From Microbulbifer sediminum (lineage in GTDB: Bacteria > Pseudomonadota > Gammaproteobacteria > Pseudomonadales > Cellvibrionaceae), in the NCBI RefSeq assembly GCF_021729035.1, contig NZ_JAJSAP010000008.1, forward strand, positions 104,314 to 168,313: DNA of 64,000 nucleotides, written 5' to 3'. Under the pieces are notes generated by a model that worked only from the letters and a program-made list of their open reading frames with translations, did no database searches and was not told the origin of the DNA. Of the stretch, positions 14,091-32,658 are shown piece after piece. The position numbers and the translations under genes were made by a program. The number at the start of each line of letters is the position of its first letter. Within the stretch, counting starts at the first letter, position 1.

Positions 14091-16763
14091 ATGATTGGAA
14101 AAATTTACGACAGGGAAACCGGGTCGGTCAGGGAGGCGCCATTGGACGGCCTGGCGCTATCGTCTATCGGGATCGTCAGTCTCCCCTTGGGGCTTGATGA
14201 AGTTGCGTCGTACGCAAGGGATGGCAATGACCTGATCATTATCCTGGAATCGGGCGAGCAGGTCGTGATCGCCAATTTCTATCAGATCGATGAGGATGGT
14301 GAGCAAAGCCACTTGGTCCTGGAGGGTGGTGAGGAGCCGATGATGCTCGCCATGCTTGGTGGATCAGGCTATCCGGTTGCTGCTGCCGCAGCTCCCGCTG
14401 CAGCCACAACCGCAGGTGTGAGTTCCTGGTTGATTCCCGGGTTGGTGGGTCTGGGCGCAATTGCCATCGCGTTAGATGACGATGATGGCAGGGATGGCTT
14501 CCAGCAGACAGGCAACAATACGCCCTCTGGCCGGCCACTACCTCCAAATCCCCCCGGTCCGCCCCCGGACAGCGATGCAGATGCTGACTCTGATGCAGAT
14601 GCCGATGCCGATACCGACGCCGATGCCGATGCAGATGCCGATACAGATGCCGATGCCGATGCGGATGCGGATGCGGATGCCGATGCGGATGCCGATGCGG
14701 ATGCGGATGCGGACGCCGATGCCGATGCGGACGCCGATGCCGATGCCGATGCGGACGCCGATGCGGACGCGGATGCTGACGCCGATGCGGATGCGGATGC
14801 GGATGCCGATGCGGATGCGGATGCGGATGCGGATGCGGATGCCGATGCGGATGCCGATGCGGATGCGGATGCCGATGCGGATGCCGATGCCGATGCGGAC
14901 GCCGATGCGGACGCCGATGCGGATGCCGATGCGGATGCCGATGCGGATGCCGATGCCGATGCCGATGCGGATGCGGATGCTGACGCCGATGCGGATGCCG
15001 ATGCGGATGCTGACGCCGATGCCGATGCGGATGCTGACGCCGATGCCGATGCCGATGCCGATGCCGATGCCGATGCCGATGCGGACGCCGATGCGGATGC
15101 TGACGCCGATGCGGACGCCGATGCGGATGCTGACGCCGATGCCGATGCGGATGCCGATGCGGATGCTGACGCCGATGCCGATGCGGATGCCGATGCCGAT
15201 GCGGATGCGGACGCGGATGCTGACGCCGATGCGGATGCCGATGCGGATGCCGATGCGGATGCCGATGCGGACGCCGATGCGGATGCCGATGCCGATGCGG
15301 ATGCCGATGCGGATGCGGATGCCGATGCGGATGCGGATGCGGATGCCGATGCGGACGCCGATGCCGATGCGGACGCCGATGCCGATGCCGATGCTGACGC
15401 TGACGCTGACGCCGATTGCGACGTCAACATCGATATAGATATCGACATCAACTGTGACTGTGACGCCGATGCGGATTCAGACGCGGATGCCGATGCTGAC
15501 GCTGACGCTGACGCGGATGGACACCCGAGCCCCATAGGCCTGGGTGGATACTGCGATCCCGACTGTCAGATAAAGGATGTCGATGTAGACATTGATATCG
15601 AGAGGGACGGGTGTGACATCAATATCGATATCGACATCGATATCGAATGTGATGCAGACGCTGACTCGGATGCGGACGCCGATGCGGATGCGGATGCGGA
15701 CGCCGATGCCGATGCCGATGCCGATGCCGATGCCGATGCTGACGCCGATGCGGATGCGGACGGTGATGCCGACGGTGATGCCGATGGTGACGCGGACGGT
15801 GATGCCGATGGTGACGCGGACGGGGATGCCGACGGTGATGCCGACGGGGATGCCGACGGGGATGCCGACGGGGATGCCGACGGTGACGCGGACGGTGACG
15901 CGGACGGTGATGCCGACGGTGACGCGGACGGTGATGCCGATGGTGACGCGGACGGGGATGCCGACGGTGACGCGGACGGTGACGCGGACGGTGATGCCGA
16001 TGGTGACGCGGACGGTGATGCCGATGGTGACGCGGACGGTGATGCCGACGGGGATGCCGACGGGGATGCCGACGGTGACGCGGACGGTGATGCCGACGGG
16101 GATGCCGACGGTGATGCCGACGGTGATGCCGACGGGGATGCCGACGGGGATGCCGACGGTGACGCCGATGGTGACGCGGACGGTGACGCGGACGGTGACG
16201 CGGACGGTGATGCCGACGGTGACGCCGACGGGGATGCCGATGGTGACGCGGACGGTGATGCCGACGGTGACGCCGACGGTGATGCCGACGGTGACGCCGA
16301 CGGGGATGCCGATGGTGACGCGGACGGTGATGCCGACGGTGACGCCGATGGTGACGCCGATGGTGACGCCGATGGTGACGCGGACGGTGACGCGGACGGT
16401 GATGCCGACGGGGACGCTGACGGCGACCAGGACATTGAGGTAAGTCTCAGCGACGTAATCCCCATGGGGGACGACAACGCTGGGATGCGCAGTGAGCCTG
16501 GAGAGTCAGAAGAGAGTGGATCGGGAATGCTGTCTGACGATCAGATGGGCCCGGACCTGGATCTTGATGATCTCGTCAGCGACTGTGAATCTGATGCAGG
16601 GTCGCTCTTCTCGGTAGCTGATACCGATGATGACACTGCGTCAGGATACACATTCTCGGGTGGTGGAAGTGGCCTCCCGGATGGCCTGGATAGCACTATG
16701 CACGCCCAGGACACTGATCCCGTCCAGGATATGTGGCAACAGAATGGACCAGACGACGTCTGA
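14091..16763 (+). CDS. BapA-prefix protein with giant Asp-Ala / Asp-Gly-Asp-Ala repeats, probable type I secretion substrate
   Basis: An 890-residue, extremely acidic protein. Residues 1-90 match the BapA/Bap 'prefix-like' domain of type I secreted adhesins (DRETGSVREAPLDG, VASYARDGNDLIIILESGEQ, VVIANFY). Residues about 97-130 are an Ala-rich stretch followed by a hydrophobic helix (SSWLIPGLVGLGAIAIAL). After a Pro-rich linker come an Asp-Ala tract (residues 160-442), a Cys-containing segment with Ile-Asp runs (443-520), more Asp-Ala (521-556), an Asp-Gly-Asp-Ala tract (557-779) and an acidic, Ser/Gly-rich tail (780-890). Eight Cys are present, seven of them around the Ile-Asp inserts. No RTX nonapeptides are visible. 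The gene is directly followed by a terminator and then by tolC-ABC-hlyD genes, so export by that system is the natural inference. Function is unknown; calcium binding, mineral binding, or acting as the scaffold for the ligases downstream are possible. Confidence 0.9.
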   Translation: MIGKIYDRETGSVREAPLDGLALSSIGIVSLPLGLDEVASYARDGNDLIIILESGEQVVIANFYQIDEDGEQSHLVLEGGEEPMMLAMLGGSGYPVAAAAAPAAATTAGVSSWLIPGLVGLGAIAIALDDDDGRDGFQQTGNNTPSGRPLPPNPPGPPPDSDADADSDADADADTDADADADADTDADADADADADADADADADADADADADADADADADADADADADADADADADADADADADADADADADADADADADADADADADADADADADADADADADADADADADADADADADADADADADADADADADADADADADADADADADADADADADADADADADADADADADADADADADADADADADADADADADADADADADADADADADADADADADADADADADADADADADADADADADADADADADADADADCDVNIDIDIDINCDCDADADSDADADADADADADGHPSPIGLGGYCDPDCQIKDVDVDIDIERDGCDINIDIDIDIECDADADSDADADADADADADADADADADADADADADADGDADGDADGDADGDADGDADGDADGDADGDADGDADGDADGDADGDADGDADGDADGDADGDADGDADGDADGDADGDADGDADGDADGDADGDADGDADGDADGDADGDADGDADGDADGDADGDADGDADGDADGDADGDADGDADGDADGDADGDADGDADGDADGDADGDADGDADGDADGDADGDADGDADGDADGDADGDADGDADGDADGDADGDQDIEVSLSDVIPMGDDNAGMRSEPGESEESGSGMLSDDQMGPDLDLDDLVSDCESDAGSLFSVADTDDDTASGYTFSGGGSGLPDGLDSTMHAQDTDPVQDMWQQNGPDDV
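14568..15416. repeat. hexanucleotide tandem tract encoding (Asp-Ala)n
   Basis: 849 bases of GAYGCN hexamers, about 141 Asp-X dipeptides, nearly all Asp-Ala with a few Ser or Thr near the start. Ala codons are mainly GCG and GCC with some GCT/GCA, and Asp codons mix GAT and GAC. Longer motifs such as GCGGATGCTGACGCCGAT recur, which indicates expansion by unequal exchange of blocks. The tract keeps every reading frame open on both strands, which produces spurious long ORFs. Confidence 0.97.
15417..15650. repeat. Cys-flanked Ile-Asp repeat inserts inside the repeat protein
   Basis: Two related inserts interrupt the Asp-Ala tracts: CDVNIDIDIDINCDCD (from 15417) and, after a short Asp-Ala stretch and a GHPSPIGLGGYCDPDC linker, KDVDVDIDIERDGCDINIDI (from about 15573) ending IDIDIEC. 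The alternating Ile-Asp pattern is expected to form beta strands with one acidic face. Asp remains at alternate positions, so the two-residue register continues through the insert. Confidence 0.85.
15759..16427. repeat. 12-base tandem tract encoding (Asp-Gly-Asp-Ala)n
   Basis: 669 bases, about 55 tetrapeptide units of Asp-Gly-Asp-Ala. Gly codons are GGT or GGG, Ala GCC or GCG, Asp GAT or GAC. It follows a short (Asp-Ala) tract (15651-15758) and ends shortly before the unique C-terminal tail. Confidence 0.97.

Positions 16764-32658: not shown

What the first reader, a model, noticed from the sequence alone, without database searches (positions are those of the whole stretch)
14091..32658. Candidate system for making and exporting an enzymatically modified polyaspartyl protein
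Seen: a BapA-prefix protein with hundreds of alternating Asp residues, then TolC, ABC and HlyD genes with overlapping starts, a transglutaminase-like protein, two CphA-like ATP-grasp/acylphosphatase paralogues, a 2-oxoglutarate oxygenase, and a facing gene joining CapA-like and MurF-like domains. Known: cyanophycin synthetase combines an ATP-grasp and a Mur-ligase domain to build an Asp backbone with side-chain amides, and CapA/CapB make poly-gamma-glutamate. Inference: here the Asp backbone is made by the ribosome and the separated ligase modules decorate its side chains before or during type I export.
Basis: partly seen in the sequence, partly recalled or inferred. Interest (0 to 1): 0.95.

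Follow-up and report, generated by a model that had tools for sequence, protein, structure and literature searches.

The report
Enzymes that decorate Asp-repeat adhesins
A Microbulbifer genome encodes a large protein, predicted to be exported, in which every second residue over long stretches is aspartate; it sits beside a multi-part enzyme, and in searches of several hundred bacterial genomes the constant part of that enzyme goes with such aspartate repeats so closely that it is predicted to decorate them chemically.

Summary
An 890-aa protein has two tracts with Asp at 292 of 296 alternate positions; TolC-ABC-HlyD, transglutaminase-like, two ATP-grasp/acylphosphatase and 2OG-oxygenase genes follow, facing a CapA-Mur gene.

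The facing protein starts with about 570 residues that match no Pfam family, predicted to hold an alpha/alpha toroid. This N-domain is the constant partner of (Asp-Xaa)n tracts. Among 397 Pseudomonadota, clear (DA)n occurs in 9 of 13 genomes with it and 0 of 384 without; among 101 Variovorax genomes, 50 of 54 and 0 of 47. The tracts sit in unrelated adhesins and export types. The N-domain is fused to swappable modules: Mur ligase, ATP-grasps, CapA, glycosyltransferase. A Klebsiella-type glycosyltransferase module resembles SdgA/SdgB, which glycosylate Ser-Asp repeats, and its partner tract is (DS)n.

By analogy the ligase modules likely modify Asp side chains of (DA)n. That step, the attached group and the N-domain's own chemistry are untested. 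The ATP-grasp pair is optional, not the core. All evidence is comparative.

The parts
14091..16763 (+). Repeat protein (890 aa): BapA-type N-terminus, two (Asp-Xaa)n tracts, conserved C-terminal tail; presumed substrate
14568..15521 (+). First (Asp-Xaa)n tract, residues 160-477, mostly Asp-Ala
15615..16436 (+). Second (Asp-Xaa)n tract, residues 509-782, Asp-Ala then alternating Asp-Gly/Asp-Ala
16905..18335 (+). TolC-family outer membrane protein
   Evidence: TIGR01844 257.6 bits, cut-off 225.15
18332..20527 (+). Type I secretion permease/ATPase (LssB type)
   Evidence: TIGR03375 801.7 bits, cut-off 693.1
20524..21795 (+). HlyD-type periplasmic adaptor
   Evidence: TIGR01843 344.3 bits, cut-off 208.65
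21846..22757 (+). Transglutaminase-like protein, accessory (absent from some relatives' loci)
   Evidence: PF01841 E 4.2e-19
22776..24758 (+). ATP-grasp/acylphosphatase protein A; ATP-grasp closest to the CphA G domain among solved structures
25183..27171 (+). ATP-grasp/acylphosphatase protein B, 50% identical to A
27193..27873 (+). 2-oxoglutarate/Fe(II) oxygenase, accessory
   Evidence: PF13759 E 1.7e-18
27904..32658 (-). Four-part enzyme: N-domain, CapA-like, middle domain, MurF-like ligase (the open frame can also start at 32742)
30940..32658 (-). N-domain, the constant partner of (Asp-Xaa)n tracts; model residues 196-552 are an alpha/alpha toroid
30202..30939 (-). CapA-like (PGA_cap) metallo-domain
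27976..29001 (-). Mur ligase middle and C-terminal domains (MurF-like)

Best explanation
The locus likely encodes a modification system that attaches small molecules to the aspartate side chains of a ribosomally made (Asp-Xaa)n tract before the protein is exported. Shown: the tract, the genes, the pairing of the N-domain with such tracts across genomes, and the fusion of that N-domain to interchangeable ligase or glycosyltransferase modules. Inferred: the N-domain grips, or itself acts on, the alternating tract, and the fused or neighbouring module does the transfer. Where the tract is (DS)n the module is an SdgA/SdgB-like glycosyltransferase, which would act on Ser. Where the tract is (DA)n or (DG)n the only reactive side chain is the Asp carboxylate, and the usual modules are Mur and ATP-grasp enzymes, families that activate carboxylates with ATP and couple them to amines (established for those families). 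In the window I predict that the MurF-like module, helped by the two ATP-grasp/acylphosphatase proteins, makes amides at Asp side chains; that the CapA-like domain, the 2OG oxygenase and the transglutaminase-like protein tailor the product; and that TolC-ABC-HlyD would export it to the surface. The group attached is unknown.
For: Pairing: (DA)n at >= 75% identity in 9 of 13 N-domain genomes and 0 of 384 others among 397 Pseudomonadota (Fisher p 1e-15). Variovorax genus sample of 101: >= 69% identity in 50 of 54 and 0 of 47 (p 2e-24), with a tract and an N-domain gene on one contig within 10 kb in 45 of the 50. Both identity cuts were set after seeing the rows; at plain E <= 1e-10 the counts are 11 of 13 against 19 of 384, and 50 of 54 against 5 of 47. 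Independence from the carrier: tracts in BapA-type, FecR/LapA-like, RTX, autotransporter and LPXTG proteins (several of these type names are my reading of the sequence); 17 of 20 regions fetched from 65 plasmid, E. coli and phage records with an N-domain match hold a tract, Bacillota included. Modules, 238 relatives (best hits of two capped lists, so not a fair sample): CapA-mid-Mur 113, GT4 79, Mur 15, ATP-grasp types 15, CapA-mid-GT4 3, none recognised by my queries 13. The GT4 module's best NCBIfam matches are SdgA E 2.8e-40 and SdgB E 5.3e-39, below their cut-offs, and its partner is (DS)n in the 3 loci read. Selection keeps Asp. 56 N-domain residues are invariant in 12 diverse members, many of catalytic type.
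Against: No call shows a modified protein or an activity. Two Microbulbifer genomes keep CapA-Mur and four keep the N-domain without repeat protein or exporter. G014 and G019 have the repeat protein and N-domain-CapA-mid but no Mur module in that protein and no ATP-grasp/acylphosphatase gene. Listeria, Enterococcus gilvus and G437 show the N-domain with no ligase recognised beside it, so it may do the chemistry itself. Variovorax/Xenophilus CapA-Mur copies have no tract within the fetched 10 kb (0 of 32 loci); there it is a second N-domain copy that lies by the tract. Other non-Microbulbifer CapA-Mur loci: 13 of 29 (many cut by contig ends). Both Acinetobacter regions showed no tract. In two genomes the ATP-grasp/acylphosphatase gene stands beside an EctB-like aminotransferase and BCCT transporters, which suggests small-molecule work (names from memory). 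The toroid is most like sugar epimerases and mannanases, so sugar chemistry is possible. The (DS)n-glycosyltransferase match rests on one related group of enterobacteria.
Confidence: 0.62

Rival explanations
1. The N-domain is a dedicated binder or chaperone that keeps the very acidic tract soluble or export-ready and makes no covalent change; the ligase modules serve other substrates.
For: The N-domain occurs without a recognised transferase beside the tract protein; toroids can bind chains (general knowledge).
Against: 56 residues, many of catalytic type, are invariant in 12 members from Enterococcus to Microbulbifer. 225 of 238 relatives are fused to a ligase or GT4 module (best-hit lists), one of them resembling SD-repeat glycosyltransferases.
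Confidence: 0.14
2. The enzymes build another surface polymer, such as a poly-gamma-glutamate-like or sugar-containing capsule, and the Asp-repeat protein is only a co-regulated partner or a scaffold to which the polymer is later fixed.
For: CapA-like domain E 2.4e-55; toroid similar to sugar epimerases and GH76; transglutaminase-like and alpha/beta hydrolase neighbours.
Against: The pairing follows the alternating-Asp tract in unrelated carriers, and in G437 the N-domain gene lies 42 bases after the (DG)n autotransporter gene with no CapA or Mur gene recognised in the 16 kb read.
Confidence: 0.12
3. The tract works unmodified, as a cation-binding or stiff spacer element, and the linkage reflects joint transfer of a cassette.
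For: In Microbulbifer the cassette sits at one place between PepN-like and FadH-like genes (gene names from memory).
Against: The pairing recurs in Alpha-, Beta- and Gammaproteobacteria and in Bacillota with unrelated tract proteins and neighbours, and in Variovorax 45 of 50 tract-bearing N-domain genomes have the two genes within 10 kb.
Confidence: 0.07

Closest known systems
SdgA/SdgB glycosylation of Ser-Asp repeat adhesins of staphylococci (PMC8561734, PMC3794999; starts of abstracts seen in the search listing)
   Same: Dedicated enzymes act on a long alternating-Asp dipeptide tract of a surface adhesin; one branch of the new family carries a related GT4 module beside a (DS)n tract.
   Different: The window's tract is mostly (DA)n/(DG)n, no glycosyltransferase was recognised among its proteins, and its modules are carboxylate-amine ligases joined to a toroid domain that SdgA/SdgB are not known to carry (recalled).
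Cyanophycin synthetase CphA (PMC9427784, PMC9262961; starts of abstracts seen in the search listing)
   Same: ATP-grasp closest to the CphA G domain (7wac) plus a Mur-type ligase; Asp-rich chain with likely side-chain amides.
   Different: The backbone is encoded and ribosomal; the ligases are separate proteins or fused to the N-domain and CapA; CphA models score far below cut-off (235 against 850 bits).
Graspetides (PMC8939145; start of abstract seen in the search listing)
   Same: Ribosomal substrate and ATP-grasp enzymes in one cluster.
   Different: The substrate is an 890-aa protein with hundreds of sites; Mur, CapA and the toroid have no graspetide counterpart known to me (recalled).
Lasso-peptide epimerase MslH (PMC10406935; passages read)
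   Same: 8gq9 and its companions, the best solved relatives of the CapA-like domain, are MslH by recollection; by motif reading both His/Asp dyads of MslH have invariant counterparts (D579, H661, D664, H796).
   Different: The Ca ligand His261 would correspond to an invariant Gly764; the same residues serve metallophosphoesterases, so epimerisation is only a possibility.
N-acylglucosamine/cellobiose 2-epimerase superfamily

Membership tests
Cyanophycin synthetase (CphA) | One polypeptide scoring above the CphA family cut-off | tested here: not met
   TIGR02068 235 and 208.9 bits for the two ATP-grasp proteins against a cut-off of 850; E 0.0023 for the Mur protein
Cyanophycin synthetase (CphA) | Asp backbone made without the ribosome | tested here: not met
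   The alternating-Asp chain is an open frame with varied synonymous codons
Cyanophycin synthetase (CphA) | Arg attached to Asp side chains | not testable with these tools
   needs chemistry
SD-repeat O-glycosylation (SdgA/SdgB) | SdgA/SdgB-type GT4 enzyme beside the tract protein, in the window | tested here: not met
   no glycosyltransferase among the Pfam matches of the nine window proteins at E <= 0.01
SD-repeat O-glycosylation (SdgA/SdgB) | The same in the Klebsiella-type relative | tested here: inconclusive
   SdgA model E 2.8e-40, 138.3 bits against a cut-off of 800, beside (DS)n
Graspetide cluster | Short precursor peptide | tested here: not met
   the substrate candidate is 890 aa
Poly-gamma-glutamate synthesis (PgsBCA/CapBCA) | CapA-like domain | tested here: met
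   PF09587 E 2.4e-55
Poly-gamma-glutamate synthesis (PgsBCA/CapBCA) | PgsC/CapC membrane subunit | not tested
   no search was made for it
Type I-secreted BapA-type adhesin | BapA prefix domain and TolC-ABC-HlyD above cut-offs | tested here: met
Type I-secreted BapA-type adhesin | RTX or Ig-like repeats | tested here: not met
   BapA_N is the only Pfam match of the repeat protein at E <= 0.01
N-acylglucosamine 2-epimerase superfamily (N-domain) | alpha/alpha toroid fold | tested here: met
N-acylglucosamine 2-epimerase superfamily (N-domain) | family profile match and catalytic His pair | tested here: inconclusive
   0 Pfam families for the window N-domain at E <= 10; the Listeria relative gives cellobiose 2-epimerase E 2.2e-4 and LanM E 1.2e-4, both far below cut-off; the His pair was not mapped

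The most novel reading that the evidence does not exclude
Bacteria make 'ribosomal cyanophycin': the ribosome lays down an exactly alternating Asp backbone, a toroid enzyme found in Pseudomonadota and Bacillota threads it, and interchangeable Mur/ATP-grasp or glycosyl modules load most of its Asp (or Ser) side chains, giving genetically templated comb polymers on the cell surface.
Probability: 0.35. Interest if true: 0.94.

Novelty: categorically new. Interest (0 to 1): 0.86.

Why it matters
If true, bacteria have a general way to turn an encoded dipeptide repeat into a densely modified surface polymer, with one constant domain and exchangeable transferases. It would give a function to a protein family that has no Pfam entry, explain long (Asp-Xaa)n tracts in adhesins of soil, marine, plant-associated and human-associated bacteria, and bring Mur ligases, known to me only from peptidoglycan, folate, cyanophycin and related work (recalled), to ribosomal proteins. 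It makes testable what these tracts are for, and could yield an enzyme toolkit for sequence-defined polyamides.

Tried and rejected
Rejected: the ATP-grasp/acylphosphatase pair as the core of the system (18 of 48 Microbulbifer genomes; 3 of these 18 outside the locus). Rejected: cyanophycin synthetase membership. Considered and left open: CapA as a peptide epimerase and the N-domain as a sugar epimerase or glycosidase.

Led nowhere or gave little: the middle domain between CapA and Mur (model pLDDT 83.2, pTM 0.53) gave only weak beta-sandwich matches. The viral structure library gave two matches at E <= 0.001, none informative. The class sample found the N-domain in only 2 of 369 genomes and the order sample around G341 in 4 of 197, so more (DS)n/glycosyltransferase pairs could not be gathered there. 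Profile searches for a solved relative of the N-domain found none convincing. One apparent repeat match in G027 showed no alternating-Asp frame in the locus map. Searches of the held literature showed no paper on (DA)n repeat proteins or on this enzyme family; one search matched 41 papers, of which the 15 listed were unrelated; one search lists papers on one Listeria locus tag that I did not read. Most subscription papers are not held.

Limits of the counts: searches scored at most 6 and 2 candidates per genome. One search was given 50 of the 61 non-Microbulbifer loci, 49 genomes were searched, and 41 of 49 match at E <= 1e-10 (45 of 49 at E <= 1e-3). In one search the 5 N-domain-free Variovorax genomes with 42-50% matches were left out of the distance count. 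Two relatives (G037, G038) have withheld stretches, so their repeat protein could not be judged; the locus of Sphingobium (L125) is partly withheld too.
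Full report
What is there. The window lies in a Microbulbifer-type genome (relatives named; the genome itself is unnamed). The repeat protein has a BapA prefix domain and two tracts in which Asp fills 292 of 296 alternate positions. Synonymous codons vary freely (GAT/GAC; four Ala codons), so Asp is kept by selection rather than by recent slippage alone. 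The other residue is mostly Ala or Gly. Between the tracts lies a short island of Asp-Ile and Cys that recurs in relatives, and the protein ends in a conserved tail.

The locus in its genus. In 48 Microbulbifer genomes the exporter ABC gene (E <= 1e-200) is in 30. Of these 30, 28 match the repeat protein and the other two have withheld stretches where it would lie. All 30 also carry a gene with the N-domain of the facing protein; 6 of the 18 others do too. The accessory genes vary: the full-length ATP-grasp/acylphosphatase gene is in 18 of 48 genomes, all of them exporter-bearing (18 of 30 against 0 of 18, Fisher p 2e-5); 15 have it in the locus and 3 elsewhere, two of those beside an EctB-like aminotransferase. 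The transglutaminase-like and oxygenase genes are missing from some loci. Two genomes, G003 and G009, keep the CapA-Mur gene without repeat protein and exporter; their proteins stop short of the Mur C-terminal domain, which fits decay after loss of the substrate but is an exception all the same.

Pairing with the tract. I searched whole genomes with a pure Asp-Ala stretch of the window. Among 397 Pseudomonadota at least 90% complete, the facing protein (N-domain included in every match, E <= 1e-60) is in 13. A match at >= 75% identity to (DA)n is in 9 of these 13 and in none of 384 others; at E <= 1e-10 with no identity cut, 11 of 13 against 19 of 384. The two N-domain genomes without a match are G006, whose gene carries a stop, and G263, whose contig begins inside an adhesin just upstream. 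Two of the 11 are not Asp-Ala: G341 has (DS)n and G437 has (DG)n. In 101 genomes of the Variovorax genus the N-domain is in 54 and a tract match in 55; 50 share both, the five tract-only genomes have only 42-50% identity, and four N-domain genomes have no match. In 45 of the 50 the two genes lie within 10 kb (median 4.8 kb). The CapA-Mur copies found by the genome scan are not themselves beside a tract in Variovorax/Xenophilus (0 of 32 loci); in other genera 13 of 29 are, many loci being cut by contig ends.

Carriers differ. Tracts sit in BapA-type proteins, in FecR/LapA-like and RTX adhesins, in an autotransporter (PF03797 E 4.6e-46) and in LPXTG proteins of Listeria, Staphylococcus and Enterococcus (FecR, LapA and RTX are my reading). 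In G437 a (DG)n autotransporter gene is followed 42 bases later by a stand-alone N-domain gene; in Listeria an LPXTG (DA)n protein is followed by a stand-alone N-domain gene. So the pairing is not a by-product of one exporter.

Modules differ and fit the tract. Among 238 relatives the N-domain is joined to CapA-mid-Mur (113), GT4 glycosyltransferase (79), Mur (15), ATP-grasp types (15, of which 12 carry the ATP-grasp of the window's pair and 8 of those its acylphosphatase), CapA-mid-GT4 (3), or nothing my queries recognised (13) (best-hit lists, not a fair sample). The GT4 module of G341 best matches SdgA and SdgB, the enzymes that glycosylate Ser-Asp repeats in staphylococci (PMC8561734 and PMC3794999 by listing), and its partner tract is (DS)n in the three loci read. 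With (DA)n, which offers no hydroxyl, the usual modules are ligases that couple carboxylates to amines. This is the main argument that the modules act on the tract.

Mechanism. I infer that the N-domain holds or processes the alternating tract in the cytoplasm and that the attached module transfers a group to it before export. For the window the MurF-like module would form amides on Asp side chains; the ATP-grasp proteins, whose ATP-grasp is nearest to the CphA G domain, may extend or vary the product; the acylphosphatase could clear stalled acyl phosphates. CapA has invariant counterparts of both His/Asp dyads of the peptide epimerase MslH by motif reading, so D-Asp is possible. None of this is shown.

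Against. Minimal pairs without any recognised ligase (Listeria, G437, Enterococcus gilvus) mean that the N-domain may do the decisive chemistry. G014 and G019 have the repeat protein without a Mur module in the facing-type protein and without the ATP-grasp pair. Acinetobacter N-domain loci showed no tract. The stand-alone ATP-grasp genes hint at small-molecule roles.

Comparison and novelty. It is not a cyanophycin synthetase (cut-off not met; ribosomal backbone), not a graspetide cluster by substrate size, and no SdgA/SdgB-type enzyme was recognised in the window. It works like a tract-modifying system of the SdgA/SdgB sort with ligase chemistry of the cyanophycin sort, built round a domain without a Pfam family. 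I found no description of it in the ten literature searches made (listed under Tried and rejected). I therefore rate it categorically new, with the caution that the claim rests on comparative genomics.

Noticed in passing
L036 9074-11062 and L037 9168-11144 with neighbours: Stand-alone ATP-grasp/acylphosphatase gene beside an EctB-like aminotransferase and two BCCT-type transporters; perhaps an osmolyte pathway (names from memory).
   Followed up: partly
L046 5728-8103: A protein joining CapA, acylphosphatase and a TupA-like ATP-grasp beside a type I exporter and a lone N-domain gene.
   Followed up: partly
L129, L130, L139, L146, L108, L136: A second repeat class rich in Gly-Leu-Leu-Gly and Asp occurs in, or next to, the tract proteins of N-domain loci.
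   Followed up: no
L040, L041: N-domain fused to a weak Asp/Asn beta-hydroxylase-like C-terminus (E 0.0069 and 0.05), beside a CapA-type protein and a separate ATP-grasp gene.
   Followed up: no
L178 13114-14160, L182 12093-13139, L183 12093-13139: An annotated alpha/beta hydrolase gene faces the N-domain-Mur gene on Agrobacterium and Rhizobium plasmids.
   Followed up: no
G020: Repeat-bearing open frames reach 3271 aa in a Microbulbifer relative.
   Followed up: no
window 16784-16823: By eye, a hairpin followed by a run of T between the repeat gene and TolC; the scan did not list it.
   Followed up: no
window 49512-49608 and 63679-63948: Tandem repeats of 15 bases (5.4 copies) and 123 bases (2.2 copies); a tRNA-Ser gene at 63310-63399 is near the second.
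   Followed up: no
H31-H38: Eight records filed as phages carry N-domain genes; the one read (L181) looks like a bacterial chromosome fragment.
   Followed up: partly
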